Part shown: positions 27,928 through 42,873 of the stretch, in pieces
Layout: the number at the start of each line of letters is the position of its first letter
Numbering within the stretch: position 1 is the first letter of the stretch
Origin: an uncultured Bacillus sp.
Lineage (GTDB): Bacteria; Bacillota; Bacilli; Bacillales_B; DSM-18226
DNA: 46,460 nt
Assembly: GCF_946478885.1 (NCBI RefSeq)
Contig: NZ_CAMLDX010000013.1
Span: forward strand, 1 to 46,460
Direction: 5' to 3'
Notes under the pieces: model-generated
Seen by the model: the letters and a program-made list of their open reading frames with translations, nothing else
Database searches by the model: none
Told to the model about the DNA's origin: nothing
Position numbers and translations under genes: made by a program

Positions 27928-27928
27928 T

Positions 27929-28477
27929 ATGCCGAGTTCAATAGGCGTAGTCGAATTTCTAAGTATTGCCCGCGGTATTTACGCTGCTGATCAGATGGTG
28001 AAAGTTGCAGATGTAGAGATAATCACCGCTAACTCCAGTTGCCCGGGCAAGTATATTGCTATTGTTCATGGTGACGTTTCAGCCGTTAATGATTCAGTAG
28101 CAATGGGTGAAAGGATAGCAAAAGAATATTTTGTCGATTCTATGATTATACCTAATGTAAGTCCGGAAATATTCCCTGCTATTACCGGGGCAACCATGCC
28201 TGAAAAAATTCAGGCACTTGGTATTATGGAATCTTTCTCCGTGGCAACAATGATTTTAGCTGCAGATGCCATTCTTAAGGCTGCTAATGTTCAAGCGATT
28301 GAACTTCGTCTGGGAAATGGACTTGGGGGAAAAGCATACTTTACATTTACAGGTAATGTGGGTGCTGTTGAAGCAAGTGTTGATGCAGGAAAAGAAATCG
28401 CAGAAGAGAAAGGATTATTGGTAAATGCAGAGATAATCCCATCGCCATCTGACAGACTGATTCCATGTTTATTTTAA
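27929..28477 (+). CDS. pduT: BMC-T shell protein with pore cysteine (PduT-like)
   Basis: 182-residue protein with two tandem BMC domains (GVVEFLSIARGIYAADQMVKVADV and LGIMESFSVATMILAADAILKAANV). The loop ANSSCPGKY puts a cysteine at residue 38, the position that holds a 4Fe-4S cluster in the pore of Salmonella PduT. The trimer could therefore conduct electrons across the shell from PduS. AGGAGG precedes the start and the gene is one base after pduS. It is the last gene of the BMC operon. After it, 28478-28747 holds no clear gene and only a weak hairpin (GAAAAG...CTTTTC), so the end of the operon is not well defined. Confidence 0.92.
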   Translation: MPSSIGVVEFLSIARGIYAADQMVKVADVEIITANSSCPGKYIAIVHGDVSAVNDSVAMGERIAKEYFVDSMIIPNVSPEIFPAITGATMPEKIQALGIMESFSVATMILAADAILKAANVQAIELRLGNGLGGKAYFTFTGNVGAVEASVDAGKEIAEEKGLLVNAEIIPSPSDRLIPCLF

Positions 28478-28747: not shown

Positions 28748-29509
28748 TTAGTATAATCTATATCCAAATTTTTTTGATAACTCCAGACCAGCCTTTTTCA
28801 ACAAATTTATATATTCGTTTAGTTTCTCGTCATTTACTTCAGAAATTAAAGTAGAGATACTAATGGCAGCTAATATTTGATTATCGTAGTTACGAATAGG
28901 TACAGCAATACAACGTACACTTTGTTCATTTTCTAGATTATCTACCGCGTAACCTTGTTGATTTACTCTTTCAAGCTCCTCCAGCAATTCAGCTTCACTT
29001 TTAATAGAGTGTTCAGTTTGAATGGTGTATACATATCCTGTTAATATACGTTGAATCTCTTTAGGATCTTGGAAGGCCAAGAGAACTTTTCCGATAGCTG
29101 TAGAGTGCAGCGGGATTCTCTTCCCAATACGAGAGTAGCGTATCACTGCCTTCTCTCCTTCAACTTTTTCGATATATACTCCTTCCTGGCCATCTAAGAT
29201 ACCAAGGTGTGTAGTTTGTCCCGTTTTTCTTGATAAATCATGAAGATATCCTTTAGCCACTTGTCTTATATCCAAGGTATTAACAACCAAGTTTCCCCGC
29301 TCAACAAGTTTCAAGCCTAATTTATATTTTCCGTTCTCAGGATTTTGGGCAATATAGTGATGTTCCTGGAGGGTTTTTAATAAAGAATGAACTGTGCTTT
29401 TGTGTAGCTGCATTCTTTCACTAATTTCCGTAATTTTCAGTTCAATTTCATATTCGTCAAATAAATCTAATATTAGAAGAGCTCGTTCTACTGATTGAAT
29501 AATGGGCAT
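28748..29509 (-). CDS. IclR-family transcriptional regulator
   Basis: 253-residue regulator. It has an N-terminal winged HTH (SVERALLILDLF...ITEISERMQLHKSTVHSLLKTLQEH) and a C-terminal effector domain with SRKTGQTTHLGILDG, the RIPLHSTAIGKVLLA motif and RCIAVPIRN. The ATG at 29509 is chosen because AGGAGG lies 8 bases upstream; an open frame continues upstream without a matching site. It diverges from the YagE-like aldolase operon. In E. coli, IclR regulators control yagEF (XynR) and are linked to yjhHG, the closest known parallels to this gene set. Two near-identical palindromes, one before each divergent gene, are probable operators. Confidence 0.92.
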   Translation of the reverse strand: MPIIQSVERALLILDLFDEYEIELKITEISERMQLHKSTVHSLLKTLQEHHYIAQNPENGKYKLGLKLVERGNLVVNTLDIRQVAKGYLHDLSRKTGQTTHLGILDGQEGVYIEKVEGEKAVIRYSRIGKRIPLHSTAIGKVLLAFQDPKEIQRILTGYVYTIQTEHSIKSEAELLEELERVNQQGYAVDNLENEQSVRCIAVPIRNYDNQILAAISISTLISEVNDEKLNEYINLLKKAGLELSKKFGYRLY

Positions 29510-29525
29510 GGAAAATCCTCCTGAT

Positions 29526-29542
29526 GTTTTATAATATAAAAT
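29526..29542 (-). promoter_or_regulatory. Candidate IclR operator, own promoter
   Basis: GTTTTATAATATAAAAT is a palindrome with 7-bp perfect arms about a central base, 17 bases upstream of the regulator start. It is nearly identical to the palindrome before the aldolase gene. Confidence 0.5.
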
Positions 29543-29734
29543 TATGTTTAAAAATACAATATAATATTTTTTTACAAATATCAACCATATTAAGTGTTGT
29601 ATACTCGGTTTAATTTCTGTGATAAATGTCTTACTTGTTTACCTTTTTGTAACTAAACAAATAAGAAGAAAACGGTTAATTTTTCAAATGATATGATATA
29701 ATCAAATTATTGAATTGCTAAATTGTGAAACTTA

Positions 29735-29807: not shown

Positions 29808-30731
29808 ATGGAACCAAAAAATTTTAGAGGAGTCATTCCTCCAGTATCGACTCTATTTGATAAAGCAGGGAATATTGATGAAAAGTCAATGAGAATTCTC
29901 ATAGATTCTTTGCTAGAAGCAAAAGTAGATGGGTTATTTTTTCTCGGAACTGGCGGAGAATTTTCTCAAATGTCAGTGGAAGAAAGAAAACAATTTGCAG
30001 AGTTTGTAGTCCGTTATGTTGATCAAAGGGTACCGGTATTAATCGGTACTGGCAGTACTAGTACACGTGAGACAATCATGTTAAGTCGGCATGCTGAAAT
30101 GATTGGAGCTGACGGAGTCGTTATTGTTAATCCATATTATTGGATATTAACAGAGGATAATTTATTTAAGCACTATAGTGAGGTAGCTGAATCAATTAAT
30201 CTCCCTATTCTGTTGTACAATTTTCCAGATCTTACCGGACAAGATTTAACTCCTGATTTTGTTTTAAAACTTGTAGACAAGTATCCTCATATTGTTGGTA
30301 TTAAAGAAACAATTGATTCTATAGGCCATATTTCGGAAATGATTCTAAAGGTCAAAGGAAAACATCCACATTTTTCCGTATTGTGCGGGTTTGATAATCA
30401 TTTGTTGAATACATTGCAAATAGGCGGGGACGGAACTATTTCTGCAAGCGGTAATTTTGCTCCGCAGCTATCTGTTGGAATTTATCAGGCATTTATCAAG
30501 GGGGACTATGCGGAAGCAATTAGGTTGAATAAACAATTGACAGTCTTGCCATTCTTATATCAGATCGACAGTCCGTTTGTAAATGTTGTGAAAGAAGCAA
30601 TAAAAATAAGCGGGATAGATATTTCGACATATGTTTTACCTCCATCTAGACCTTTAAGTGAAGAAAAGATTGAGCAGGTCAAAAAAATTATGGAACTTTC
30701 GGAGGTAATTCCGACAACTATTTCTAAATAA
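29808..30731 (+). CDS. 2-keto-3-deoxy sugar-acid aldolase (DapA family, YagE/YjhH-like)
   Basis: 307-residue class I aldolase of the DHDPS family. Sequence closely recalls E. coli YagE/YjhH: GLFFLGTGGEFSQM, the stretch NPYYW, YNFPDLTGQDLTP and GTISASGNFAP. The Schiff-base lysine is Lys166 (HIVGIKETIDS) and the catalytic tyrosine is Tyr137. YagE and YjhH split 2-keto-3-deoxy-D-gluconate or 2-keto-3-deoxy-pentonates to pyruvate and an aldehyde. ATG 29808 follows AAAGAGGTGAATACATA. An IlvD/Edd dehydratase and IclR gene accompany it here as in E. coli yagEF and yjhHG, supporting a xylonate-like pathway. The chain length of the natural substrate is open. Confidence 0.88.
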   Translation: MEPKNFRGVIPPVSTLFDKAGNIDEKSMRILIDSLLEAKVDGLFFLGTGGEFSQMSVEERKQFAEFVVRYVDQRVPVLIGTGSTSTRETIMLSRHAEMIGADGVVIVNPYYWILTEDNLFKHYSEVAESINLPILLYNFPDLTGQDLTPDFVLKLVDKYPHIVGIKETIDSIGHISEMILKVKGKHPHFSVLCGFDNHLLNTLQIGGDGTISASGNFAPQLSVGIYQAFIKGDYAEAIRLNKQLTVLPFLYQIDSPFVNVVKEAIKISGIDISTYVLPPSRPLSEEKIEQVKKIMELSEVIPTTISK

Positions 30732-30965: not shown

Positions 30966-32147
30966 ATGTTAACTCCTAGAACCATTTATTGGCCTCCTAT
31001 AAATCTTGTAGGACCTGGCAGTGTAAAATTGGTTGGACCCGAAGTGAAAAAGTTAGGCTTGGCAAAAGCATTACTCGTAACCGATAAAGTACTGAATTCA
31101 AATGGAGTTGTAAAAGAAATCACTGACGTTCTTGATGAAGCGGGTGTTGCTTACACCATTTTTGATCATGTTAAACCAAATCCAACAACCACAAACGTGC
31201 ATGAAGGATTTTCTATCTTTCAAAAGGAAGGCTGTGATTTCATTATTACAGTCGGCGGCGGTTCTCCGCAAGATACTGGTTCAGCTATTGGCGTCCTATC
31301 TACAAATGGTGGAAATATTGCTGATTATGAAGGGATGCATAAATCAAAAAACAAATCGGTGCCCATTGTAGCAATTAGCACCACTGCAGGCACAGCCGCT
31401 GAAGTAACCATCAACTATGTAATCACTGATGAGGCACGTAAATTGAAAATGATCATGATTGATCCTAACGCTCTGCCAACCATTGCAGTAAATGATCCGG
31501 TATTGATGCTTAAAAAACCAAAGGGTTTAACAGCTGCAACCGGTTTAGATGCCCTTACGCATGCAATTGAAGGATATACAGCCAAAGGAGCCTTCGAACT
31601 ATCAGATGCAATCGCTTACAAATCAATCGGATTAATTGGTAGATATCTAGAAAGAGCAGTAGAAAACGGATCAGATCTTGAAGCTCGCTCAGGTATGGGC
31701 TGGGGATCGTTTATTGCGGGGCTTTCATACTCGAATGCCGGCCTTGGTATTGTTCATAGCATGGCGCATCAATTGGGCGGAGAATATGATTTGGCGCACG
31801 GTGTTGCCAATGCCATGTTACTTCCTTATGTTATGGAATTCAATATGGATGCTTGCCCAGAAAAATTTGCTGATATTGCACGTGCATTAGGTGTGGATAC
31901 AGCCGGTACAACGGTTGAAGAAGCTGCCAAGATGGCTGTTGCAAAAGTACACGAGATTTCAAGAACGGTAGGAATTCCTTCGTTGAGAGAGTCTGCTTTT
32001 AGAGTAGAAGATGTAGAAAAATTAGCAGAACAAGCATTAAAAGATGCTTGTACAGGAGCAAATCCTAAGCAGGTAACCAAAGAAGATCTTGTAGGAATTT
32101 TTATGACCGCATATAATGATGCGCCAATGCCTGTTGCCGCTCAATAA
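30966..32147 (+). CDS. Iron-dependent alcohol dehydrogenase, lactaldehyde reductase-like (copy 1)
   Basis: 393-residue family III alcohol dehydrogenase close to FucO. The NAD motif is VGGGSPQDTGSAIG (about 97-110). All four metal ligands are present: Asp195 and His199 (GLDALTHAIEGY), His264 (IVHSMAH) and His278 (LAHGVANAMLLP). FucO-type enzymes reduce lactaldehyde to 1,2-propanediol or glycolaldehyde to ethylene glycol, which fits the aldehyde expected from the aldolase upstream. ATG 30966 follows AGAGAGTGATCATTC. The gene is the first of a tandem pair; residues 199-378 are encoded by a tract identical in DNA to copy 2. Confidence 0.9.
   Translation: MLTPRTIYWPPINLVGPGSVKLVGPEVKKLGLAKALLVTDKVLNSNGVVKEITDVLDEAGVAYTIFDHVKPNPTTTNVHEGFSIFQKEGCDFIITVGGGSPQDTGSAIGVLSTNGGNIADYEGMHKSKNKSVPIVAISTTAGTAAEVTINYVITDEARKLKMIMIDPNALPTIAVNDPVLMLKKPKGLTAATGLDALTHAIEGYTAKGAFELSDAIAYKSIGLIGRYLERAVENGSDLEARSGMGWGSFIAGLSYSNAGLGIVHSMAHQLGGEYDLAHGVANAMLLPYVMEFNMDACPEKFADIARALGVDTAGTTVEEAAKMAVAKVHEISRTVGIPSLRESAFRVEDVEKLAEQALKDACTGANPKQVTKEDLVGIFMTAYNDAPMPVAAQ
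31560..32100 (+). repeat. 541-bp identical tract, copy in first FucO-like gene
   Basis: Bases 31560-32100 are identical to 32833-33373 at a spacing of 1273. The identity stops at a G/A difference at 31559 and a T/A difference at 32101. The N-terminal third of the two genes is clearly diverged, so this looks like a conversion tract. Confidence 0.95.
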
Positions 32148-32238: not shown

Positions 32239-33420
32239 ATGTTAACTGCTAGACGAATTTATTGGCCCTCCATTAATTTTGTAGGCCCTGGCAGTGTTAA
32301 GTTTGTTGGGGAAGAAGTAAAGAAATTAGGATTAAAAAAAGCATTACTTGTTACAGGTGGAGTATTGAATCGAAATGGAGTAGTAAAGAAAATCACTGAT
32401 ATCCTTGATCAATATGATATTGCCTATACTATTTTTGCTGATGTTAAACCTAATCCAACAACCACAAACGTGCATGAAGGATTTGCTATGTTTCAAAAAG
32501 AAGACTGTGATTTCATTATTACAGTTGGCGGCGGTTCTCCGCAAGATACTGGTTCAGCTATTGGCATCCTATCTACAAATGGCGGGAATATTGTTGATTA
32601 CGAAGGGATGCATAAATCAAAAAACAAATCGGTGCCCATTGTAGCGATTAGCACCACTGCAGGTACAGCTGCTGAAGTTACCATCAACTATGTAATCACT
32701 GATGAGGCACGTAAACTGAAAATGATTATGATTGATCCAAATGCTCTGCCAACCATTGCTGTTAACGACCCAGAATTAATGCTTAAAAAGCCAAGGGGTT
32801 TAACAGCTGCTACTGGTTTAGATGCCCTTACACATGCAATTGAAGGATATACAGCCAAAGGAGCCTTCGAACTATCAGATGCAATCGCTTACAAATCAAT
32901 CGGATTAATTGGTAGATATCTAGAAAGAGCAGTAGAAAACGGATCAGATCTTGAAGCTCGCTCAGGTATGGGCTGGGGATCGTTTATTGCGGGGCTTTCA
33001 TACTCGAATGCCGGCCTTGGTATTGTTCATAGCATGGCGCATCAATTGGGCGGAGAATATGATTTGGCGCACGGTGTTGCCAATGCCATGTTACTTCCTT
33101 ATGTTATGGAATTCAATATGGATGCTTGCCCAGAAAAATTTGCTGATATTGCACGTGCATTAGGTGTGGATACAGCCGGTACAACGGTTGAAGAAGCTGC
33201 CAAGATGGCTGTTGCAAAAGTACACGAGATTTCAAGAACGGTAGGAATTCCTTCGTTGAGAGAGTCTGCTTTTAGAGTAGAAGATGTAGAAAAATTAGCA
33301 GAACAAGCATTAAAAGATGCTTGTACAGGAGCAAATCCTAAGCAGGTAACCAAAGAAGATCTTGTAGGAATTTATATGACTGCATATAATGACGCGCCGG
33401 TGCCCGTTGCTGCTCATTAA
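32239..33420 (+). CDS. Iron-dependent alcohol dehydrogenase, lactaldehyde reductase-like (copy 2)
   Basis: Tandem paralogue of the preceding gene, also 393 residues, with the same complete metal site (Asp195, His199, His264 and His278) and NAD motif. Differences cluster in the first ~90 residues (for example LNRNGVVKKITDILDQYDIAY against LNSNGVVKEITDVLDEAGVAY), the region around the cofactor side of the fold. The leader is also duplicated: both genes start after AAAAGAGAGTGATT. The second half is identical at DNA level to copy 1. Two enzymes with one catalytic half and different N-termini could differ in cofactor preference or partner, which is inference. ATG 32239. Confidence 0.9.
   Translation: MLTARRIYWPSINFVGPGSVKFVGEEVKKLGLKKALLVTGGVLNRNGVVKKITDILDQYDIAYTIFADVKPNPTTTNVHEGFAMFQKEDCDFIITVGGGSPQDTGSAIGILSTNGGNIVDYEGMHKSKNKSVPIVAISTTAGTAAEVTINYVITDEARKLKMIMIDPNALPTIAVNDPELMLKKPRGLTAATGLDALTHAIEGYTAKGAFELSDAIAYKSIGLIGRYLERAVENGSDLEARSGMGWGSFIAGLSYSNAGLGIVHSMAHQLGGEYDLAHGVANAMLLPYVMEFNMDACPEKFADIARALGVDTAGTTVEEAAKMAVAKVHEISRTVGIPSLRESAFRVEDVEKLAEQALKDACTGANPKQVTKEDLVGIYMTAYNDAPVPVAAH
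32833..33373 (+). repeat. 541-bp identical tract, copy in second FucO-like gene
   Basis: Partner of 31560-32100 with no mismatch over the whole tract by direct line-by-line comparison. It is flanked by silent and non-silent differences on both sides. Confidence 0.95.
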
Positions 33421-33450: not shown

Positions 33451-35181
33451 ATGTCAAATCAAATTAAACAGCGGAGCTCAGAAGCACGAAAAATTTGGTC
33501 ACAGTTTGATGCATTACAATTAGGAATGAATTGGTCTGAAGAGGATATTACAAAACCGCAAATTTTGGTGGAAGATGTATATGGAGACAGTCATCCTGGA
33601 AGTTACCATTTAAATAAACTAACTGAACAGGCGAAAATTGGTATATATGAAAAAGGAGGCCGTCCTGCACAATTTCATGTTACAGATGTTTGTGACGGCT
33701 GCGGACAAGCACATGATGGGATGAACTATATTCTTCTTTCCCGAGAAACCATTTCGGATATGATCGAAGTTCATGCAATGCATCAGCCATTTGACGGCTT
33801 AATTCTTAGTTCTTCTTGCGATAAATCAATTCCAGCTCATTTAAAAGTTGCCGCTCGTTTGGATTTGCCGACAGTATTTATTCCAGGTGGAAGTATGAGA
33901 CCAGGTCCAAGTTGGCAAGATTCCGTTCATGGAGCAGAAATTGATCTGAAGATTAAGCGAGGAGAAGATGCTTATAAGGAACTGCGAAATTATAAGCTAA
34001 CGGGATGTCCATCTGTGGGGGCTTGTCAATTTCTTGGAACAGCAAGTACTATGCAAACAATGGCAGAAGCCTTAGGGATGACTTTACCTGGTGCTGCTTT
34101 AATGCCTGCAACAATGCGCGACATTGTCGGTATGTCTAGACAAGCTGGTAAGAAAATTATGGAGTTGGTAGAAAAAGGTATAACTACCAGTCAAATACTT
34201 ACTGAAGCTGCTTTTAAAAATGCCATTATTGTTCATGCAGCTATCGGCGGCTCCACAAATGCAATGATTCACCTTCCAGCTATTGCTCGTGAAGTAGGAA
34301 TCATAATTAAACCTGAACTATTTGATGAAATAAACCATAAGATCCCACATATTGGGAATATAACCCCTAGTGGTCAATGGCATACTGAATGCTTCTGGTT
34401 TGCGGGGGGAATTCCAATGGTGCAATGGATTCTTCGTGATTATCTGGATTTAAGTGTGATGACAGCTTCCGGAAAAACACTTGGAGAGAATCTTCAAGAT
34501 TTATGGGAAGATGGATTCTTCGATAGATATACTGGTTATCTGCATAATTATGGTTTATCACGTGAAGATCTGATAAAACCGCTTGAATCTGTTGAAGAGA
34601 TAGGTTCGTTAGCGGTATTGAAAGGAAACTTGGCACCTGAAGGAGCCGTTATTAAATATGCTGCTGCATCACCTCAAATGCACGAACATGTCGGTCCTGC
34701 AAGAGTATTTGACTCTGAAGAGGATTGCTATGATGCGGTTGTGAGAAAAGTAGTACAACCTGGAGAGGTGTTGTTTATCCGATATGAAGGACCACGTGGT
34801 TCGGGTATGCCTGAAATGCTGATGACTACAGAAGCTATTGTAGTTGACGAACGTCTAAACGGATCGGTAGCTCTTGTTACAGATGGACGTTTTTCAGGAG
34901 CAACTCGTGGACCTGCTGTTGGACACGTTTCACCTGAGGCAACGGTGGGAGGTCCCATCGCATTAGTTGAAGATGGTGATTTAATTGAGTTAAGCGTGAG
35001 TAAACGTGTAATTCAAATTGTAGGTATTGCCGGAAAACGATGCAGTGAGCAGGAAGTAGAACGTGTACTTGCTGAAAGACGTACGAAGTGGGAAGCACCT
35101 GATCATTCACATAGAAAAGGGATCTTCAAACGTTATACGGCAAATGCAACATCTGCAATGAAAGGCGCTTATTTAGAATAA
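33451..35181 (+). CDS. IlvD/Edd-family sugar-acid dehydratase
   Basis: 576-residue dehydratase that would remove water from an aldonic acid to give a 2-keto-3-deoxy acid. Fe-S ligand candidates are Cys81/Cys84 ([12 protein letters not shown]), Cys123 ([11 protein letters not shown]) and Cys192 ([16 protein letters not shown]), the three-cysteine pattern of this family. The C-terminal part has [21 protein letters not shown], with the catalytic serine position in GRFSG. Length is like L-arabinonate/D-xylonate dehydratases (~580), shorter than E. coli YagF/YjhG (655). It lies between the FucO-like genes and a transporter, in one direction with the aldolase. Branched-chain synthesis (IlvD) is unlikely in this setting. 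Confidence 0.87.
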
Positions 35182-35357: not shown

Positions 35358-36641
35358 ATGACTGATGTAAAAAGTATTCCTAAAGGCCGTTGGCTACATA
35401 TTATTCCAGCGTGTGTTATTGTATATATCGTTGCCTTCCTAGACCGTGGTAACATTAGCTTTGCTATTGCAGGTGGAATGGATAAAGAATTAGGGATGGC
35501 AGCAAGTATTTCGGGTTTAGCTGCAGGTATCTTCTTTGTAGGTTACTTAATACTGCAAGTGCCTGGCGGACATATAGCAGAGAAAGGCAATGCGAAAAAG
35601 TTTATCGCCTGGACCATTGCTGCATGGGGCGGATTAGCGATCTTAAACGGTTTTGTTCAAAGTACAAACCAATTATTATTAGTTCGGTTTCTATTAGGGG
35701 TTGCAGAAGGTGGAGTATACCCTGCTATTCTAACGATTATTAGCCACTGGTTCCCTAGTGAAGAACAAGGTCGTGCCAATGCATATTTCCAAATGAACGT
35801 AGCAATCGCTAATATTATTGCGGGTCCTTTATCAGGTTTTATTATCCAAGCTACTGGATGGCGCGAGCTATTTATCATTGAAGGTGTGTTATCTTTAGCA
35901 TTAATTTTTGTTTGGCTTCCATTGATCAGCAATAGACCAAGTGAAGCAAAGTGGATCTCAAAAGAAGAGCTTGAATGGATTGAAGGAAAAATTGCTGAAG
36001 ATCAAGCATCTATTAAAGGCGGGTCCCAGAGAAAAGTGTCAATGGGCGAATTATTTAAAAATATTAATATGGTGAAACTAATTGCTATTTATTTCTTTAT
36101 GCAAATTGGTTTCTACGGATTTTCTCTATGGCTGCCAACTCTATTAAAATCGATTTCATCCGGCGGCATGGGAACAATTGGACTTCTAAGTGCAGCTCCT
36201 TACATTATGTGTATTGTTGGACAATATGTATTTGCCAATCTCTGCGACAAAACTCAAAATCGCAAACTGTATACAGCACTTCCTATCCTTGGCTTTGCCG
36301 TATGTCTAACACTTGCAACACTCACTAAAAACAGTGTCTGGGTTTCCTATGCCTTTATGGTTCTTTGCGGAACATTTTTACAAGCGGCAACAGGGCCATT
36401 TTGGACATTGCCTTCAAACCTATTCCCAGCAGAGGTTGCTGGGGCAGGTCGTGGTATCATCAATGCTTTAGGAAACTTAGGTGGATTTGTCGGTCCATAC
36501 ATGGTCGGATTTATTATCCAATACATGAATCAAAGTGCAGGAACGTATTCTTTAGTATTCTTCCTTCTTTTAGGAGTTGTGTTGGTGTTCACTATTCCTT
36601 CTTCTGTAAATGGTATAAAACCGCATTCAAAGGTTGCTTAA
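35358..36641 (+). CDS. MFS transporter, anion:cation symporter family (sugar-acid uptake)
   Basis: 427-residue membrane protein with about 12 hydrophobic segments and the ACS-family (GudP/ExuT/GarP-type) character. It begins RWLHIIPACVIVYIVAFLDRGNISFAI, and has GGHIAEKGNAKKFI in the loop after TM2, RFLLGVAEGGVYPAIL and HWFPSEEQGRANA in TM4-5, and a central cytoplasmic loop (WISKEELEWIEGKIAED). Such carriers take up hexuronates, aldarates and aldonates with protons. It is flanked by two dehydratase systems, so a sugar acid is the likely cargo. ATG 35358 follows TTGGAGGTTTTAACACG. The exact substrate cannot be read from sequence. Confidence 0.9.
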   Translation: MTDVKSIPKGRWLHIIPACVIVYIVAFLDRGNISFAIAGGMDKELGMAASISGLAAGIFFVGYLILQVPGGHIAEKGNAKKFIAWTIAAWGGLAILNGFVQSTNQLLLVRFLLGVAEGGVYPAILTIISHWFPSEEQGRANAYFQMNVAIANIIAGPLSGFIIQATGWRELFIIEGVLSLALIFVWLPLISNRPSEAKWISKEELEWIEGKIAEDQASIKGGSQRKVSMGELFKNINMVKLIAIYFFMQIGFYGFSLWLPTLLKSISSGGMGTIGLLSAAPYIMCIVGQYVFANLCDKTQNRKLYTALPILGFAVCLTLATLTKNSVWVSYAFMVLCGTFLQAATGPFWTLPSNLFPAEVAGAGRGIINALGNLGGFVGPYMVGFIIQYMNQSAGTYSLVFFLLLGVVLVFTIPSSVNGIKPHSKVA

Positions 36642-36876: not shown

Positions 36877-37170
36877 ATGGAACGTAATATTAATGCTCTC
36901 ATCATTAAGCCAATAGATTCGGTGGCTGTTACGGTTACCCCCCTAACTAAAGGGGATCTCGCCGTTTATTTGGTAAATGGAGAAGAAAAACAAACCCCCG
37001 TTATGCAAAATATACCTATCTATCATAAGCTCTCATTGATAGAAATTAAAAAGGGCGATGCAGTAATAAAATATGGTGAAAGTATCGGCACTGCAAGCAG
37101 GGATATTCATATTGGCGAGCATGTTCATACTCATAATGTTACAAGTAATCGGGAACAAATCCGGCATTAA
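36877..37170 (+). CDS. UxaA-family hydro-lyase, small SAF-domain subunit
   Basis: 97-residue protein matching the N-terminal SAF domain of altronate/galactarate dehydratases: NALIIKPIDSVAVTVTPLTKGD near the start, then HKLSLIEIKKGDAVIKYGESIGTA and a metal-binding-like GEHVHTHN. In many enzymes this is fused to the large catalytic domain; here it is a separate gene 17 bases before the large subunit, as in sulfolactate sulfo-lyase SuyAB and some other UxaA-family pairs. ATG 36877 follows ATAGGAGGGAAATAT. With the large subunit it would dehydrate or eliminate from a hydroxy acid. The substrate is undetermined. Confidence 0.85.
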   Translation: MERNINALIIKPIDSVAVTVTPLTKGDLAVYLVNGEEKQTPVMQNIPIYHKLSLIEIKKGDAVIKYGESIGTASRDIHIGEHVHTHNVTSNREQIRH

Positions 37171-37187
37171 ACAAAGGAGGAGAACAG

Positions 37188-38348
37188 ATGAAATTCAAAG
37201 GATATAAAAGACCTGATGGAAAAGTAGGAATTCGAAATTATGTATTGCTTTTGCCGGCAAGTGCTTGTGCCAGTGATACTTGTCGCTTTGTGGCACAGGA
37301 AGTAAATGGAACGGTAAATATTATTAATCAAAACGGCTGCGCCCAGGTAGAAAGCGATCTTAAGATTACGCAGGATGTTCTTGCCGGTTTTGCTGCTAAT
37401 CCGAATGTGTATGGAACCATTTTGATTTCTTTGGGTTGTGAAACGAACCAGATAGACCAAATGGAACGAATAATCAAATCGAAAACGAATAAACCATTAA
37501 AAACGTTTATTATTCAAGAAGATGGCGGAACGGTGGAGGTTACAAAAAAGGCAGCTGAAATAGCTCGTCAAATGACAGCAGAGGCTTCGGCCTTAGTACC
37601 TGAGGAATTTGATATTTCTGAACTGATTGTCGGAACCAATTGTGGTGGGTCTGATCCGACATCTGGTCTTGCCTCGAATCCGGTTGTTGGAAACTTGAGC
37701 GATCGTCTGGTCGATTTGGGCTCTACATCAATATTATGTGAAACCACCGAGTTTATCGGTGCAGAGCATATTTTGGCCAAGCAAGCTGCGACACCTGAAA
37801 TTGCTGACCAAATCTATTCAATTATTAAGCGTTACGAAGATCATTTAGCTAATGTTGGTGAGTCACTGAGAGACGGAAATCCTTCTCCGGGGAACAAGGC
37901 GGGAGGACTTACGACAATTGAAGAGAAATCACTTGGCTGTATCCATAAAGGAGGCCATCGCCCGATTGTAGAGGTGTTTGATTATGCCCAGGCTCCAACT
38001 AAGAAGGGTTTAGTTATCATGGACACTCCAGGATACGATCATGCTTCTGTTACCGGTGTAGCTGCAGGTGGTGCTCAACTGTTAGTATTTACGACAGGAC
38101 GCGGACAGCCTTGTGGAAACCCAATCATGCCTGTAATCAAACTTACAGCCAATAAACAAACCTATGATAAGATGACAGATAATATCGATTTAGATGTCAG
38201 CCCGGTTCTTCGTGGAGAAAAATCAGTGGAGGATATGGGTGAGGAATTATTGAACTTAGTTGTTGAAGTCGCAAATGGAAAACAACCGAGAGCTGAATAT
38301 TATGGATTTAGTGACATTGCAATTAGTCGGGTTTGCAATTACGTCTAA
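37188..38348 (+). CDS. UxaA-family hydro-lyase, large catalytic subunit
   Basis: 386-residue UxaA C-terminal-type protein. Family motifs include GYKRPDGKVGIRNYVLLLPAS at the start, NQNGCAQ, LISLGCETNQ, VGTNCGGSDPTSGLASNP, CETTEFIGAEH and TGRGQPCGNPIMPVIKLTAN. Conserved cysteines and acidic residues in these motifs bind the catalytic metal in relatives. Known activities of the family are altronate, galactarate and sulfolactate elimination. A sugar acid is favoured by the IlvD/Edd, aldolase and transporter neighbours, but the split arrangement also recalls SuyAB. ATG 37188 follows AAGGAGGAGAACAG. Confidence 0.87.
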   Translation: MKFKGYKRPDGKVGIRNYVLLLPASACASDTCRFVAQEVNGTVNIINQNGCAQVESDLKITQDVLAGFAANPNVYGTILISLGCETNQIDQMERIIKSKTNKPLKTFIIQEDGGTVEVTKKAAEIARQMTAEASALVPEEFDISELIVGTNCGGSDPTSGLASNPVVGNLSDRLVDLGSTSILCETTEFIGAEHILAKQAATPEIADQIYSIIKRYEDHLANVGESLRDGNPSPGNKAGGLTTIEEKSLGCIHKGGHRPIVEVFDYAQAPTKKGLVIMDTPGYDHASVTGVAAGGAQLLVFTTGRGQPCGNPIMPVIKLTANKQTYDKMTDNIDLDVSPVLRGEKSVEDMGEELLNLVVEVANGKQPRAEYYGFSDIAISRVCNYV

Positions 38349-38440
38349 GGTCCTGAAAATTACCTTTATACTGGAATTGACTTGAATTGAAAGTAATCCT
38401 TACATCGTATTGATAATTCCTGAGTGGAGATGAAAATAAA

Positions 38441-39742
38441 ATGGAATCATTAGATTTAAGTAAATTTCCTAAAATCGACTTACCGCGTTTTCTAAAAATC
38501 AAACAACATTTTAACTCCAAAAAGGTAGAAGACATCCCAACAGAAGTTCGAACTAAGATGGAACCTCATTTACAAGATTTAGAGGGTAAACGGATTGCTG
38601 TTGGAGTAGGTAGCCGTGGAGTAGCTAATATTGCGCTTATCACCAAAACAGTAGTTGACACTTTAAAAGAAGCTGGAGCATTACCATTTATTATTCCTGC
38701 CATGGGGAGTCATGGTGGTGCAACTTCGGAAGGACAAGCTGAAATGTTGGCTGGATTTGGCATTACTGAAGAAACGATGGGCTGTCCGCTTGATCCCTCC
38801 ATGGATGTTGAACCAATAGGGGAGCTTGATCCGGGACTTCCTATTTATGTTTGTAAAAGTGCCCTTGAAGCAGATGGAATCGTGATAATTCCTAGAATCA
38901 AACCTCATACCGCTTTTCGTGGACCTATTGAAAGCGGAGCTCTTAAAATGCTTTGCATTGGACTAGGAAAACAAATTGGTGCTGATTCAATCCATATGAA
39001 TGGGTTTGCCCGTTTCCACGATCTAATTCCAAGAACAGGAATTTTTATTGCGGGAAGAACGAATGTCCTATTCGCAGTATCCGTTGTGGAAAATGCCTTT
39101 GATGACACATATAAAGTAGAAGTTCTTTCAAAAGATGACATGATTGCCATGAATAAGGAAAAAGCATTGTTGAAGGAAGCAAAAAAAATAATGGCAAGTA
39201 TTCCATTCCAAACCTTTGACGTACTGGTCATTGATGAAATAGGTAAAAACATTAGCGGAGATGGTCAAGATCCGAATGTGACAGGCCTATTTTTCGGAAA
39301 ACATATGAGTGGGGGTCCTGAATTTAAGAAAAGTGTGATTTTTGATGTTACTGAAGAATCTCATGGCAATGCGTTAGGAGTCGGGATGGCCGATGTAACG
39401 ACAAGAAAACTATTTGATAAAACCAATTTTGTCTATATGTATATGAATGCATTTACTAGTACTGAGGTAGATACTGTTAAAATGCCAATGGTCGCTGCAA
39501 CATCCGAGGATGCCTTGCGAATTGCTGTAAAAATGTGTAATGGCGTAAATATGAAAGAACATAAAATCGTCTGGATTAAAAACACCCTGGAACTATCAGA
39601 AGTAGTGATCAGTGAACCGCTTCTTGCTGAAGCACAAGCAATGCCGCATGTGGAGGTGTTAACTGATCCTATCGAATTAACATTTAAGGATGGAGAACCG
39701 GAGAAAGAGCTTTTGTCTAGAAAAATTCCCGTACATGCTTAA
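38441..39742 (+). CDS. LarA-family nickel-pincer hydroxyacid racemase/epimerase
   Basis: 433-residue enzyme of the lactate racemase superfamily, using the nickel-pincer nucleotide made by LarB, LarE and LarC from the genes that follow. The region PHTAFRGPIESGALK holds His156 and Lys169; His185 is 16 residues after the lysine, the same spacing as Lys184-His200 in L. plantarum LarA. An early GSHGGATSEGQ motif gives His91, matching His108. The lysine is therefore the expected attachment site for the cofactor. The GPIESG form differs from the AGFGGGRK form of lactate racemase, placing it in another branch. Desguin and colleagues described LarA homologues acting on malate, hydroxyglutarate and gluconate. 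With sugar-acid genes next to it, a sugar-acid 2-epimerase is the leading guess. Confidence 0.85.
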   Translation: MESLDLSKFPKIDLPRFLKIKQHFNSKKVEDIPTEVRTKMEPHLQDLEGKRIAVGVGSRGVANIALITKTVVDTLKEAGALPFIIPAMGSHGGATSEGQAEMLAGFGITEETMGCPLDPSMDVEPIGELDPGLPIYVCKSALEADGIVIIPRIKPHTAFRGPIESGALKMLCIGLGKQIGADSIHMNGFARFHDLIPRTGIFIAGRTNVLFAVSVVENAFDDTYKVEVLSKDDMIAMNKEKALLKEAKKIMASIPFQTFDVLVIDEIGKNISGDGQDPNVTGLFFGKHMSGGPEFKKSVIFDVTEESHGNALGVGMADVTTRKLFDKTNFVYMYMNAFTSTEVDTVKMPMVAATSEDALRIAVKMCNGVNMKEHKIVWIKNTLELSEVVISEPLLAEAQAMPHVEVLTDPIELTFKDGEPEKELLSRKIPVHA

Positions 39743-40021
39743 AATATGAGAATGCTACGTAATAATCATTAAGGGGAAGAAAGGATAAGTGTTGTCAGAT
39801 TCGTTATGATTTTCATCTTAATGCTTGCACTAGGATAGGAATGAAGGAGTTTTTTACATCCTTGGAAACGATCATTGGAAAGCTTATCCTTTCTACTCTT
39901 ATTGCTCTTTTTTTGCCACTATGAAGGATGATTCATTGAATTTTTAACTATCCTTTTTCATTTTTAATCATTAAAAAAAGTTGTATAGATGAATACACTG
40001 CTTTGAAGGGGGAGCATGCGA
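39743..40021 (+). other. Structured larA-larE gap with a possible 27-codon hydrophobic ORF
   Basis: AGAAAGGATAAG (39778-39789) and CTTATCCTTTCT (39883-39894) are perfect 12-base inverted arms 93 bases apart. Between and after them, an ATG at 39841 opens 27 codons of a hydrophobic peptide (MKEFFTSLETIIGKLIL...), ending at 39924 and preceded by AGGATAGGA. It resembles the first membrane helix of DctQ-type proteins and may be a remnant or a tiny real gene. Confidence 0.35.
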
Positions 40022-40816
40022 ATGAAAGAGAAATATGAACATCTTAAACAAATATTAAAAGAAATGGAAAATGTCGTTGTTGCGTTTTCAGGCGGTGTTG
40101 ATAGTACATTTCTTTTAAAAGTAGCAGTAGATGTTTTGGGGGTTGAGAACGTTCTGGCGGTAACGGCTAACTCCGAATCTTATCCTGCTAGCGAATTGGA
40201 AGAGGCAAAATCATTGGCTAAATTAATTGGAGCATCACATAAAATAATCGATCACTCAGAATTGAATATTCCTGGGTATGCTGAAAATGATAAGAATCGC
40301 TGTTATTACTGTAAAAATGGATTGTTTGAAAAAATTGCACCTATTATGCAACAAGCAGGATATCGAAACCTTGTATATGGTTTAATTGCTGATGATATGG
40401 GTGATTATCGCCCTGGTGTCCGGGCAGCCAATGAACATGGAGTACGCGGACCTTTACAGGAAGCAGCACTTTTTAAAGAAGAAATTCGTGAACTGTCTAA
40501 ACAACTAAACTTGCCTACATATAATAAACCATCGTTAGCTTGCCTATCATCAAGAATTGCTTATGGAGAGAAAATTACTCAAGAAAAGCTAACAAAGGTT
40601 GAAAAGTCAGAGGGTTATCTAAAAGGATTGGGAATCGGACAAGTACGTGTCCGTACTCATCAGGAAATGGCTAGGATCGAAGTAGAGCCTCAAGACATGC
40701 AGCTCATTTTAACTCATCATAGTAAAATACTGCGTAATCTGCAGGGGTTTGGCTATAAATATGTTACTCTTGACCTGCAAGGCTACACGAGTGGCAGCAT
40801 GAATAAAATGATATAA
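40022..40816 (+). CDS. larE: LarE, sulfur insertase for the nickel-pincer cofactor
   Basis: 264-residue PP-loop ATPase that adenylates and sulfurates the carboxylated pyridinium precursor. The PP-loop is AFSGGVDSTFLLK. RCYYCKNGLFEKI is characteristic of LarE, and SLACLSSRIAYG contains the cysteine in the region of Cys176, the sacrificial sulfur donor of L. plantarum LarE. The ATG at 40022 is preferred, with GAAGGGGGAG nine bases upstream; another ATG at 40016 is too close to that site. First of four cofactor genes. Confidence 0.92.
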   Translation: MKEKYEHLKQILKEMENVVVAFSGGVDSTFLLKVAVDVLGVENVLAVTANSESYPASELEEAKSLAKLIGASHKIIDHSELNIPGYAENDKNRCYYCKNGLFEKIAPIMQQAGYRNLVYGLIADDMGDYRPGVRAANEHGVRGPLQEAALFKEEIRELSKQLNLPTYNKPSLACLSSRIAYGEKITQEKLTKVEKSEGYLKGLGIGQVRVRTHQEMARIEVEPQDMQLILTHHSKILRNLQGFGYKYVTLDLQGYTSGSMNKMI

Positions 40817-40843
40817 AAAGTCTGAACTAAGGGTGAGACCCAA

Positions 40844-41611
40844 ATGGAAAATAGAAATATTGAAGAGATATTAAACCAAGTGAAAGAAGGTAAGATAGAT
40901 GTGGATCAGGCTAAAGCGATGCTGGTCCAATTTCAAGACATGGGTTTTGCAAAACTTGATCATTTGAGACATGGTCGTACAGGATTTCACGAGGTGGTGT
41001 ATGGTGAAGGGAAAAGTGTAGAACACCTCATTACAATCATTTCCACCTTAAAGCAAAATATTAATCGTGTACTCGTAACTAGAGTGGAAGAGCAAAAGGC
41101 ATCAAAAATCATGGCTGCTGTTTCCGGTCTTACATACAATCCAGTGGCTAGAACATTATTTTGGAAGGCTGATTCTGAGCCAGAGATAATATATAACGGA
41201 TATATTGCCGTTGTATGTGCAGGAACCTCTGACTTACCAGTTGCGGAGGAAGCAGCCGTTACTGCTGAAGCATTTGGAGCTTCGGTAAAAAGAATTTACG
41301 ATGTAGGGGTGGCTGGAATTCATCGGCTTTTTCATTACCTTGATGCAATTGAGAATGCAACTGTTACCGTTGCAGTTGCCGGGATGGAAGGGGCACTTCC
41401 AAGTGTCGTTGGCGGTTTAATCCGCAATCCCATTGTTGCGGTACCGACAAGCATTGGTTATGGTGCTAATTTTCATGGCCTATCAGCCTTATTATCCATG
41501 CTCAATGCCTGTGCTCCGGGAATCAGTGTTATGAATATTGATAATGGCTTTGGTGCAGGGTATTATGCGACATTAATTCATAAAAATCATTTTAAAAATA
41601 TAAAAGAATAA
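40844..41611 (+). CDS. larB: LarB, pyridinium carboxylase/hydrolase
   Basis: 255-residue protein with a C-terminal domain related to the PurE class of AIR carboxylases (VVCAGTSDLPVAEEAAVTAEAFG, GVAGIHRLF, VAVAGMEGALPSVVGGL and IAVPTSIGYGA-like VPTSIGYGANFHG). LarB carboxylates nicotinic acid adenine dinucleotide and releases AMP, the first step to the nickel-pincer nucleotide. The N-terminal ~90 residues (EEILNQVKEGKIDVDQAKAML) are the usual LarB-specific part. It is 27 bases after larE and 12 before larC1, clearly one operon. ATG 40844 follows GGTGAGACCCAA. Confidence 0.93.
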   Translation: MENRNIEEILNQVKEGKIDVDQAKAMLVQFQDMGFAKLDHLRHGRTGFHEVVYGEGKSVEHLITIISTLKQNINRVLVTRVEEQKASKIMAAVSGLTYNPVARTLFWKADSEPEIIYNGYIAVVCAGTSDLPVAEEAAVTAEAFGASVKRIYDVGVAGIHRLFHYLDAIENATVTVAVAGMEGALPSVVGGLIRNPIVAVPTSIGYGANFHGLSALLSMLNACAPGISVMNIDNGFGAGYYATLIHKNHFKNIKE

Positions 41612-41623
41612 AGAGGAGAAAAA

Positions 41624-42385
41624 ATGAAAACTCTCTATTTTGATTGTTTTTCTGGAATTAGCGGGGATATGACCATTGGTGCTCTTATTGACTTAGGGGC
41701 AGACATACAATACTTCGAGAAGGAATTAAAAAAGCTAAACATAGATGAAGAATACAGTCTTAAATGGGAAAAGGTTGTTAAAAAGGGAATTTCGGCAACA
41801 AAATTCGATGTAATACTGTCTGAAAAGCAAACGAATAATCATGACGGTGAACACCTTCATCATCACGAGCATCACCATCGACATTATTCTGATATCGTCA
41901 CTATGATTAAAAATGCGAAATTTAAAGATAATGTCCAGACGATGGCGCTGTCTATTTTTGAAAAAATCGGCAGAGCTGAAGCAAAGATACATAATATCCC
42001 GTTTGAAAAGGTTCATTTTCATGAAGTCGGTGCTATTGATTCGATTATCGATATTGTTGGGACATGCATCCTCCTTGAACAATTGGGGATAACCAAAATC
42101 GTCTCTTCTCCTGTTCCTGTTGGGAATGGCTGCGTTAAAATTGCTCATGGACTGTATCCAGTACCTGCACCAGCAACTTTAGAAATTTTGAAAGGGCTGC
42201 CAATTAAGAAAACAGAGATTGAAGGTGAAGTGACAACCCCTACAGGAGCAGGTATTCTGTCAGCTCTCTCCGAAGAATATGGACCCATTCCGTCTTTTAA
42301 TGTTGTTTCAATCGGGTATGGGGCAGGAACGAAGGATTTCCCCGAACATTCGAATGTTCTACGTATAATATTAGGCACTATATAG
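41624..42385 (+). CDS. larC1: LarC1, N-terminal part of the nickel insertion cyclometallase
   Basis: 253-residue protein that, with LarC2, inserts nickel into the pincer cofactor using CTP. It begins LYFDCFSGISGDMTIGALIDLG and has the His-rich loop at residues 73-87 (H-D-G-E-H-L-H-H-H-E-H-H-H-R-H), typical of LarC and probably a nickel store. KVHFHEVGAIDSIIDIVG, then PVPAPATLEILKG and TPTGAGILSAL follow. TAG at 42383 ends the frame. In L. plantarum, LarC1 and LarC2 are joined by a programmed frameshift; here that looks impossible because the -1 frame also has TAG at 42388. Start ATG 41624 follows AAGAGGAGAAAAA. Confidence 0.93.
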   Translation: MKTLYFDCFSGISGDMTIGALIDLGADIQYFEKELKKLNIDEEYSLKWEKVVKKGISATKFDVILSEKQTNNHDGEHLHHHEHHHRHYSDIVTMIKNAKFKDNVQTMALSIFEKIGRAEAKIHNIPFEKVHFHEVGAIDSIIDIVGTCILLEQLGITKIVSSPVPVGNGCVKIAHGLYPVPAPATLEILKGLPIKKTEIEGEVTTPTGAGILSALSEEYGPIPSFNVVSIGYGAGTKDFPEHSNVLRIILGTI

Positions 42386-42405
42386 TCTAGAAGGTGGGAG
42401 CTTAT

Positions 42406-42873
42406 ATGTCACAGCATTTCTCGCATATTGAAGAGCATATTGATATAGACATGGTCAAGATGGAAGTAAACCTCGATGATATACCGGGGGAGTGGCTAGG
42501 CTACTTGATGGATCAATTATTTGAAGCAGGTGCGAATGATGTATTTTATACTCCTATTTATATGAAGAAAAATCGTCCAGGTGTCTTGGTTCAGCTATTA
42601 TGTAAGAAACAGAAAATTAACGAGATGAAAAAAATATTATTTGCTGAAACAACTACACTTGGCATTCGCTATTATCCATTATCTGTCCATCGATTAGCCC
42701 GGAAATTTTTAAAAGTCAAGACCGAGTGGGGGGAAGTTACAGTTAAACAAGGTATACATGAAGGTGAAATTATTCAATATGCACCAGAATATGAAGATTG
42801 TTATAAAATCGCAAAGGAATATAATGTTCCAATAAAAAAAGTTTATCAAAAAGTGTGGGAAGAATTAAAATAA
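42406..42873 (+). CDS. larC2: LarC2, C-terminal part of the nickel insertion cyclometallase, separate polypeptide
   Basis: 155-residue protein corresponding to the C-terminal CTP-hydrolysing part of LarC: VKMEVNLDDIPGEWLGYLMDQLFEAGANDVFYTPIYMKKNRPG is the recognisable core, given here only as an extent near residues 17-59. ATG 42406 has its own site AAGGTGGGAG; the GTG at 42394 lies inside that site and is not used. The start is 20 bases after the larC1 stop, so translation is probably coupled and the two chains associate after synthesis. Last gene of the operon, followed by an AT-rich hairpin. Confidence 0.9.
   Translation: MSQHFSHIEEHIDIDMVKMEVNLDDIPGEWLGYLMDQLFEAGANDVFYTPIYMKKNRPGVLVQLLCKKQKINEMKKILFAETTTLGIRYYPLSVHRLARKFLKVKTEWGEVTVKQGIHEGEIIQYAPEYEDCYKIAKEYNVPIKKVYQKVWEELK

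What the first reader, a model, noticed from the sequence alone, without database searches (positions are those of the whole stretch)
36877..42873. LarA-family nickel-pincer enzyme in a sugar-acid operon: candidate new epimerase
The LarA homologue keeps the cofactor lysine (Lys169) and His185 at the right spacing but has a GPIESG form unlike lactate racemase. It lies between a split UxaA hydro-lyase and a full larEBC set, downstream of an IlvD/Edd dehydratase, an aldolase and a sugar-acid transporter. Lactate genes are absent. A sugar acid, deoxy sugar acid or sulfo-hydroxyacid C2 epimerase that feeds one of the two dehydratases would be an undescribed pathway link.
Basis: partly seen in the sequence, partly recalled or inferred. 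Interest (0 to 1): 0.75.

Follow-up and report, generated by a model that had tools for sequence, protein, structure and literature searches.

The report
Nickel epimerase in deoxy-sugar-acid breakdown
A bacterium carries a LarA-fold protein, from a family with no assigned substrate in the papers we could read, beside genes for nickel-pincer cofactor synthesis and two dehydratases of sugar-acid-type families; it likely flips carbon 2 of an imported sugar acid (probably a 6-deoxy one), which the neighbouring enzymes would then split into pyruvate and lactaldehyde, the latter predicted to become the propanediol that the microcompartment encoded next door would consume.

Summary

Best reading: a non-phosphorylating deoxy-sugar-acid pathway. 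LarA inverts C2, a dehydratase makes a 2-keto-3-deoxy acid, a YagE-type aldolase gives pyruvate and lactaldehyde, and FucO-like enzymes make 1,2-propanediol for the microcompartment. 'Sugar-acid C2-epimerase' is well supported by context, '6-deoxy' moderately; the stereoisomer (my guess: L-rhamnonate) is open. The sulfo-hydroxyacid idea is not supported. The isomerase class is already named, so any novelty lies in substrate and pathway.

The parts
38441..39742 (+). LarA homologue, nickel-pincer isomerase group 22 (433 aa): predicted sugar-acid C2-epimerase
36877..37170 (+). UxaA1: SAF-domain small part of a split UxaA/GarD dehydratase (97 aa)
   Evidence: PF08666 28.4 bits, cut-off 21; N-terminal part of the galactarate dehydratase model, 35 bits
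37188..38348 (+). UxaA2: large part of the split UxaA/GarD dehydratase (386 aa)
   Evidence: PF20629 328.6 bits, PF04295 133.6 bits; only PDB match galactarate dehydratase 6u7l
40016..40816 (+). LarE, sulfur transferase of nickel-pincer cofactor synthesis
   Evidence: TIGR00268 362 bits, cut-off 150
40844..41611 (+). LarB, nickel-pincer cofactor synthesis
   Evidence: NF033503 289.6 bits, cut-off 175
41624..42385 (+). LarC1, N-terminal part of the nickel insertion protein
   Evidence: TIGR00299 225.3 bits, cut-off 90; PF01969 profile 1-234
42394..42873 (+). LarC2, C-terminal part of the nickel insertion protein; probable start ATG at 42406 behind a ribosome-binding-site-like stretch (by eye)
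   Evidence: NF052512 153.2 bits, cut-off 50; PF01969 profile 243-375; sequence view
35358..36641 (+). MFS transporter, best model D-galactonate transporter: predicted sugar-acid importer
   Evidence: PF07690 194 bits; TIGR00893 273 bits, below cut-off 395
33451..35181 (+). IlvD/EDD-family dehydratase
   Evidence: PF00920 349 bits, PF24877 209 bits; all NCBIfam models below cut-off, dihydroxy-acid dehydratase models score best
30966..32147 (+). FucO1, iron-type alcohol dehydrogenase, lactaldehyde-reductase-like
   Evidence: TIGR02638 476 bits, cut-off 523, best of the models
32239..33420 (+). FucO2, second copy; DNA identical to FucO1 over about bases 600-1080 of the alignment
   Evidence: TIGR02638 480 bits, cut-off 523; identity profile
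29808..30731 (+). YagE-type DHDPS-family 2-keto-3-deoxy-acid aldolase
   Evidence: PF00701 277.5 bits; best PDB match E. coli YagE 383 bits, next 163
28748..29584 (-). IclR-family regulator, divergent from the cluster; closest model KdgR
   Evidence: PF01614, PF09339; KdgR model 211.7 bits, below cut-off 275
15628..15888 (+). Small BMC shell protein (86 aa)
   Evidence: PF00936 98.6 bits
15908..22779 (+). Microcompartment genes PduB, BMC shell, PduL, EutJ, flavoprotein-like, CoA-acylating aldehyde dehydrogenase, iron-type alcohol dehydrogenase
   Evidence: NCBIfam, Pfam
23000..25531 (+). Glycyl-radical diol/glycerol-dehydratase-like enzyme (843 aa) with an insertion as in microcompartment types
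   Evidence: 1r8w 1120 bits, 5i2a diol dehydratase 1045 bits; residues 591-644 absent from 1r8w, spanned in 5i2a
25600..28477 (+). Glycyl-radical activase, PduS-like and PduT-like proteins
   Evidence: TIGR02494 390.6 bits, cut-off 174; RnfC model 228.9 bits, below 245.95; PduT model 140 bits, below 250; two BMC domains
12570..14562 (-). Response regulator (12570-13406) and PocR-domain histidine kinase (13315-14562), predicted propanediol sensing
   Evidence: PF10114 PocR 149.3 bits, PF06580; PF00072, PF12833

Best explanation
The gene at 38441-39742 encodes a group-22 LarA-fold protein that likely uses a nickel-pincer cofactor, predicted to be made by the LarE, LarB and LarC1/LarC2 encoded beside it, to invert carbon 2 of an imported sugar acid, most probably a 6-deoxyhexonate. 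Inferred steps: (1) the MFS protein imports the acid; (2) H91 and H156 act as the two acid/base residues while the nickel-pincer cofactor, bound to K169 and ligated by H185, carries the hydride, so that one C2-epimer becomes the other; (3) the epimer with the right C2/C3 configuration is dehydrated to a 2-keto-3-deoxy acid by the split UxaA enzyme or by the IlvD/EDD enzyme; (4) the YagE-type aldolase splits it into pyruvate and lactaldehyde; (5) the FucO-like enzymes reduce lactaldehyde to 1,2-propanediol; (6) the adjacent glycyl-radical microcompartment dehydrates it to propionaldehyde and on to propionyl-CoA and propanol. My single best guess for step 2 is L-rhamnonate (2R,3R) to 6-deoxy-L-gluconate (2S,3R), because the UxaA/GarD substrates D-arabinonate, D-altronate, L-fuconate and L-galactonate of PMC6336799 are 2S,3R (descriptors recalled) and L-rhamnonate is not. 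Shown here: families, fold, residues, gene order and co-occurrence. Not shown: activity, nickel, substrate, co-transcription.
For: Family and fold. Catalytic residues. Cofactor dependence: in the family of Neobacillus PS3-12 (G002), LarC occurs in 61 of 62 genomes with group-22 LarA (59 of 60, plus G001 and G002) and in 2 of 20 without, Fisher 6e-15, not corrected for kinship. Sugar-acid role of the family: UxaA within 5 kb at 20 of 120 places in 80 genomes, about 0.7 expected (without G001-G005, some of which I had seen before, 15 of 112 by count from that call); UxaA beside it also in Sporomusa, Loktanella and Sulfitobacter; P. cellulositrophicus has uxaC-larA-SDR-larE-larB-larC with gndA about 5.7 kb upstream, which reads as glucuronate to mannonate to gluconate. 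The divergent regulator is closest to KdgR, below cut-off. Deoxy-acid step: FucO-like pair, YagE-type aldolase, and the C. jejuni L-fucose cluster, with a split altronate dehydratase of 88 and 389 residues plus DapA, drawn as giving pyruvate and lactaldehyde (PMC9100392 passages). Propanediol end: and PMC6325248 passages. Linkage beyond the window: the cluster recurs in L001 and L002, and both genomes also carry the microcompartment genes; only 5 of 193 family genomes have a glycyl-radical match of 75% identity or more, and the only two with a LarA of 70% or more are among them.
Against: In Neobacillus (G002) the glycyl-radical locus lies about 2.5 Mb from the LarA cluster and in G001 on another contig, so adjacency in the window is not conserved. 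G002 has no split UxaA, so UxaA cannot be the obligate partner there; IlvD/EDD is the more constant neighbour (91 and 93% identical), and it resembles dihydroxy-acid dehydratases more than the sugar-acid dehydratase models. In C. jejuni a Cj0483 knockout still used L-fucose (PMC9100392), so even that parallel is not settled. G385 has the UxaA-aldolase-LarA set but only a 36% glycyl-radical match. The FucO-like proteins score below the lactaldehyde reductase cut-off, so glycolaldehyde or glyceraldehyde are possible. The best PDB match of the glycyl-radical enzyme is a glycerol dehydratase. No sugar dehydrogenase or lactonase was found in the scanned ORFs. LarA D72 has no counterpart. In the phylum-wide sample 21 of 80 genomes with group-22 LarA have no LarC, no better than chance against 10 of 20 controls for the first 40 (Fisher 0.41). 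PMC7583248 itself found genomic context not always helpful.
Confidence: 0.5

Rival explanations
1. A hexonate C2-epimerase, for example D-mannonate to D-gluconate, working like GntE; the 2-keto-3-deoxy acid is then KDG and the aldolase gives pyruvate and glyceraldehyde.
For: Some group-22 relatives sit beside uxaC, SDR, FGGY kinase and 6-phosphogluconate dehydrogenase genes; the aldolase is closest to YagE, titled a 2-keto-3-deoxy-galactonate aldolase in the PDB; the transporter's best model is D-galactonate and the regulator's KdgR; the glycyl-radical enzyme could take glycerol.
Against: Relatives with uxaC or with FGGY plus Gnd (L003, L062, L142; L070, L077) fall outside the window's 16-row clade, though in that clade only the window and L001 have a known context; the window cluster has no kinase or Gnd in the scanned ORFs but has two lactaldehyde-reductase-like genes and a propanediol-type microcompartment with a PocR-domain kinase.
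Confidence: 0.2
2. A pentonate C2-epimerase (for example D-ribonate to D-arabinonate) feeding UxaA; the aldolase gives pyruvate and glycolaldehyde, which FucO-like enzymes reduce to ethylene glycol.
For: One UxaA/GarD-family enzyme takes D-arabinonate best (PMC6336799); FucO-type enzymes also reduce glycolaldehyde (recalled).
Against: Would give the adjacent propanediol-type microcompartment no substrate made by this cluster.
Confidence: 0.12
3. A broad or small 2-hydroxyacid racemase (lactate, 2,3-dihydroxybutyrate, sulfolactate) that only happens to sit in a sugar-acid cluster.
For: Some LarA homologues are promiscuous (PMC11770544 abstract); some group-22 relatives sit beside GlcD-like oxidases and D-2-hydroxyacid dehydrogenases.
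Against: Pairing with UxaA recurs far beyond chance and in Bacillota, Pseudomonadota and a Verrucomicrobia bin; sulfo-type glycyl-radical models are far below cut-off.
Confidence: 0.1
4. A LarA-fold protein that does not use the nickel-pincer cofactor.
For: 21 of 80 phylum-sample genomes with group-22 LarA lack LarC and none of these has LarB over cut-off; the Asp equivalent to D72 is missing; no sequence-level PDB match; Pfam DUF362 matches slightly better than Lar_N.
Against: R59, H91, H156, K169 and H185 are kept, also in 13 of the 13 LarC-less genomes checked out of 21; in the window, L001 and L002 the cofactor genes stand in the same cluster; LarC co-occurs in 61 of 62 genomes of the G002 family.
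Confidence: 0.05

Closest known systems
NCBIfam NF052515, nickel pincer cofactor-dependent isomerase, group 22
   Same: Same family by curated cut-off (509.8 against 400 bits)
   Different: Nothing tested here differs; the family name carries no substrate. That NCBI's 'group 22' equals group 22 of PMC7583248 is assumed; the groups tested there (Table 1) do not include 22
GntE, D-gluconate/D-mannonate 2-epimerase (Thermotoga maritima, PDB 4nar)
   Different: T157-A158 follow the second catalytic His where GntEs usually have E, V (PMC11770544; loop lengths differ, so the mapping is tentative); not placed in one tree here
Lactate racemase LarA (L. plantarum, 5huq/6c1w)
   Same: Fold, catalytic His pair, cofactor Lys, nickel His, LarBCE genes
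   Different: 14-15% identity in the structural alignment, loop between second His and Lys 3 residues longer than in canonical homologues, no D72 counterpart
Single-histidine LarA_Bw/LarA_Sp (9q3j, 9q3k)
   Different: Those have Asn in place of the second His; the window protein has His (H156)
Campylobacter jejuni L-fucose cluster (Cj0480c-Cj0490)
   Same: Split altronate-dehydratase-type pair plus DapA-type aldolase, lactaldehyde as drawn product (PMC9100392)
   Different: Has sugar dehydrogenase, hydrolase and aldehyde dehydrogenase, no LarA named; lactaldehyde goes to lactate; the Cj0483 knockout still used L-fucose
GRM3/GRM5 glycyl-radical propanediol microcompartments
   Same: Diol-dehydratase-type glycyl-radical enzyme, activase, PduS/PduT-like genes
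   Different: No fuculose-phosphate aldolase in the scanned ORFs; here a predicted non-phosphorylating acid pathway is next door instead

Membership tests
NCBIfam nickel-pincer isomerase group 22 | Score over curated cut-off | tested here: met
   509.8 against 400 bits
LarA superfamily | Two-domain LarA fold | tested here: met
LarA superfamily | Two catalytic histidines (H108, H174) | tested here: met
   H91 and H156 by profile alignment, 68/68
LarA superfamily | Cofactor lysine K184 and nickel histidine H200 | tested here: met
   K169, H185, spacing 16
LarA superfamily | R75, phosphate/carboxylate contact | tested here: met
   R59, 67 of 68 rows
LarA superfamily | D72, ribose contact | tested here: not met
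   No counterpart in the profile alignment; a residue-level structural superposition was not available
LarA superfamily | Bound nickel-pincer cofactor | not testable with these tools
   larE, larB, larC1/C2 present over cut-off
GntE (gluconate 2-epimerase) | Residues E, V at LarA 175-176 | tested here: not met
   T157, A158 after H156; the paper says 'usually' E, V; mapping tentative because of the loop length
GntE (gluconate 2-epimerase) | D-gluconate 2-epimerase activity | not testable with these tools
   -
Single-histidine LarA subfamily | Asn in place of H174 | tested here: not met
   His in 68/68 rows
UxaA/GarD dehydratase superfamily (split form) | SAF part plus GD_AH_second and GD_AH_C parts | tested here: met
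Sulfolactate sulfo-lyase SuyAB | Sequence subgroup of the split UxaA/GarD forms | not tested
   No SuyAB reference was fetched
1,2-propanediol glycyl-radical microcompartment (GRM3/5) | Diol-dehydratase-type glycyl-radical enzyme with about 60-residue insertion, activase, shell genes | tested here: met
   feature list from PMC6325248 passages; the encapsulation peptide itself and the vertex protein were not looked for
GRM5 microcompartment | Fuculose-phosphate aldolase in the locus | tested here: not met
   No such family among the ORFs scanned

The most novel reading that the evidence does not exclude
A nickel-pincer 6-deoxyhexonate 2-epimerase opens an undescribed, kinase-free route from deoxy-sugar acids such as L-rhamnonate to a glycyl-radical propanediol microcompartment: C2 inversion, dehydration, aldol cleavage to pyruvate and lactaldehyde, reduction to 1,2-propanediol, and dehydration inside the shell.
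Probability: 0.4. Interest if true: 0.65.

Novelty: new variant of a known kind. Interest (0 to 1): 0.5.

Why it matters
Group-22 LarA proteins are widespread: 93 of 398 genomes sampled from one phylum have a match to the window protein (seven of them weak), as do 113 plasmid records including Roseobacter and haloarchaeal ones; no substrate was found for the group in the papers read. The context points to sugar acids and gives a short, testable substrate list. If the deoxy-acid reading is right, nickel becomes a requirement for part of deoxy-sugar-acid use, and propanediol microcompartments gain a non-phosphorylating feeder pathway. It would also show how one dehydratase can serve both C2-epimers of its substrate.

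Tried and rejected
Sequence search of the PDB with the protein and with its 68-row profile found nothing; the structure comparison did. Sulfo-hydroxyacid reading: set aside on glycyl-radical model scores; SuyAB itself was not compared. Lactate reading: no lactate-specific gene among the scanned ORFs. 'GPIESG' as a specificity motif: rejected, because ESG is invariant across the rows and the P varies. Nickel transporter beside larA in L001 and L002: dropped as evidence; the 218-residue protein looks NicO/UreH-like by eye, but in L001 PF03824 (29.2 bits, cut-off 27.7) ties with DsbD_2 (29.9), and in L002 only DsbD_2 is listed, and NCBIfam gives nothing. Promoter and terminator scan of 28400-43200 gave no excess over shuffles (50 against 47.4; 11 against 9.5), so transcription units are not defined. 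LarC co-occurrence as general proof of cofactor use: holds in the G002 family, not in the phylum sample (25 of 40 against 10 of 20, Fisher 0.41, 59 of 80). Literature searches; no title or abstract start listed there ties LarA homologues to UxaA, fuconate or rhamnonate; the supplementary tables of PMC7583248 could not be read. Papers: PMC12611868 section 4 read whole; PMC7583248 sections 5, 8, 9 and passages; PMC11770544 abstract and sections 4, 6; PMC6336799, PMC9100392, PMC6946681, PMC6325248, PMC11796402 passages only; the rest search listings.


Full report
What is there. The finding's coordinates hold, in order and on one strand, a split UxaA dehydratase (36877-37170, 37188-38348), a LarA homologue (38441-39742), LarE (40016-40816), LarB (40844-41611) and LarC in two parts (41624-42385, 42394-42873). 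Upstream on the same strand lie an MFS transporter, an IlvD/EDD dehydratase, two FucO-like alcohol dehydrogenases and a YagE-type aldolase, with a divergent IclR-family regulator at 28748-29584 whose closest model is KdgR, below cut-off. Gaps between genes from the regulator to LarC2 are 8 to 273 bases.

What the family does elsewhere. In 80 genomes with 120 group-22 places, a UxaA-family gene (PF20629) lies within 5 kb of 20 places; about 0.7 would be expected from the number of UxaA genes if genomes had 2.8 Mb. Leaving out G001-G005, 15 of 112 remain (counted from the same call). In 46 loci the recurrent neighbour clusters that I had annotated are TRAP transporter parts, IlvD/EDD, DHDPS-family aldolases, FGGY kinases, 6-phosphogluconate dehydrogenase, Zn- and short-chain dehydrogenases, FAD-binding GlcD-like proteins, D-2-hydroxyacid dehydrogenases and GntR regulators; many single neighbours were left unannotated. 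Of seven plasmid regions opened out of 113 matching records, one had no annotation; three carried UxaA beside LarA (Sporomusa, Loktanella, Sulfitobacter), one carried uxaC-LarA-SDR-larE-larB-larC with gndA about 5.7 kb upstream, and two carried mandelate-racemase-family genes without UxaA. The P. cellulositrophicus order reads as glucuronate, fructuronate, mannonate, gluconate, with LarA as mannonate/gluconate 2-epimerase; that is inference.

Cofactor. In the family of Neobacillus PS3-12 (G002) the nickel insertase LarC occurs in 59 of 60 genomes with group-22 LarA and 2 of 20 without; with G001 and G002 61 of 62, Fisher 6e-15, uncorrected for kinship. Against this, in the phylum-wide sample LarC is missing from 15 of 40 and 6 of 40 genomes with group-22 LarA and from 10 of 20 without, and all 21 LarC-less ones also lack LarB over its cut-off, although the catalytic residues were kept in the 13 of these that I checked. 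G026, whose contig C1 of 2.88 Mb is nearly its whole stated 2.9 Mb, has ten matches to the LarA N-terminal domain but no LarC and no LarB over cut-off. Incomplete assembly does not easily explain that case; cofactor uptake, unrecognised maturation genes or a cofactor-free function remain open. LarE was not searched in these genomes.

Why deoxy acids. Two FucO-like genes follow the aldolase; lactaldehyde reductase is their best NCBIfam model, 476 and 480 bits against a cut-off of 523. Directly upstream lies a microcompartment locus: shell proteins including PduB, PduL, CoA-acylating aldehyde dehydrogenase, alcohol dehydrogenase, a glycyl-radical enzyme, its activase, PduS- and PduT-like proteins, and behind it a PocR-domain sensor kinase with a response regulator; PocR of Salmonella is a 1,2-propanediol-responsive activator (PMC11264322, listing only). 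The glycyl-radical enzyme is closest to glycerol and diol dehydratases (1120 and 1045 bits), has the extra segment spanned by diol dehydratase 5i2a but not by 1r8w, and falls far below the cut-offs for sulfopropanediol dehydratase, choline lyase and hydroxyproline dehydratase. PMC6325248 (passages) describes GRM3, 4 and 5 loci as 1,2-propanediol users, GRM5 fed from fuculose- or rhamnulose-phosphate through lactaldehyde. The C. jejuni fucose cluster has the same split dehydratase (88 and 389 residues) plus DapA and is drawn as making pyruvate and lactaldehyde, though a Cj0483 knockout still used L-fucose (PMC9100392 passages). PMC6336799 (passages) assigns a heteromeric L-fuconate dehydratase of this family by gene context. 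So lactaldehyde is the simplest product that joins the two halves of the window.

How far the linkage goes. The cluster recurs as YagE-FucO-IlvD-MFS-UxaA1-UxaA2-LarA-(218-residue membrane protein)-LarE-LarB-LarC1-LarC2 in L001. In L002 it is YagE-FucO-IlvD-MFS-LarA-(218-residue membrane protein), then a large UxaA-like gene on the other strand, then MFS, an interrupted second LarA, LarE, LarB and LarC. Both genomes carry the microcompartment genes too (79 and 83% identical glycyl-radical enzyme), though not beside the cluster. In 193 family genomes only five have a glycyl-radical match of 75% or more, and the only two with a LarA of 70% or more are among them; by simple arithmetic that has a chance of about 5 in 10,000, ignoring kinship.

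Stereochemistry (from recalled descriptors). The UxaA/GarD substrates D-arabinonate, D-altronate, L-fuconate and L-galactonate are 2S,3R; IlvD/EDD sugar-acid dehydratases act on 2R,3S acids. A C2-epimerase alone therefore cannot turn a UxaA substrate into an IlvD substrate, but it can bring 2R,3R acids such as L-rhamnonate to UxaA, or 2S,3S acids such as D-rhamnonate to IlvD. This is why I take LarA to widen the input of a dehydratase rather than to connect the two dehydratases, and why I guess L-rhamnonate. The L002 cluster, which has IlvD but no split UxaA, would fit the second option; the choice is open.

Verdict. The reading 'sugar-acid C2-epimerase feeding a dehydratase' is well supported by context but concerns a family that NCBI already names as a nickel-pincer isomerase. 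The new part is the proposed 6-deoxyhexonate route into a propanediol microcompartment, which is moderately likely and directly testable.

Noticed in passing
G026 and 20 other phylum-sample genomes with group-22 LarA: 21 of 80 genomes with group-22 LarA have neither LarC nor LarB over cut-off; G026, whose 2.88-Mb contig is nearly the whole genome, has ten Lar_N matches and still lacks both. Possible cofactor uptake, unknown maturation genes or incomplete data.
   Followed up: partly
30966-33420: The two FucO-like genes are a tandem pair whose DNA is identical over about bases 600-1080 of the alignment, 98% in the next 60, and 58-97% in the other blocks of 60; L001 and L002 have one copy. Recent duplication or gene conversion, or an assembly effect.
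   Followed up: partly
41624-42873: LarC is split into two ORFs in different frames, LarC2 with its own ribosome-binding-site-like stretch and ATG; L001 and L079 show the same split, and P. cellulositrophicus is annotated with two LarC genes.
   Followed up: partly
6167-12466: DeoR-type regulator (- strand) and a + strand set of ABC transporter ATPase, permease, binding protein, class-V aminotransferase and HAD hydrolase: looks like an aminophosphonate-use operon (recalled resemblance).
   Followed up: no
L012:8676-9938 next to L012:9953-11230: A canonical LarA-like ORF directly precedes a group-22 LarA, behind a UxaA2-like gene: two LarA-type proteins of different groups in one cluster.
   Followed up: no
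L078 and L079 (G002), second LarA at L079:7328-8604: Neobacillus carries a second, interrupted LarA copy in the same region; the aldolase (L078) and LarC1 (L079) are also in pieces, so sequencing errors are possible.
   Followed up: no
L001:8864-9520 and L002:11346-12002: A 218-residue membrane protein directly after larA, absent from the window; NicO/UreH-like by eye (a nickel transporter would fit), but Pfam scores tie NicO with DsbD_2 in L001 and list only DsbD_2 in L002.
   Followed up: partly
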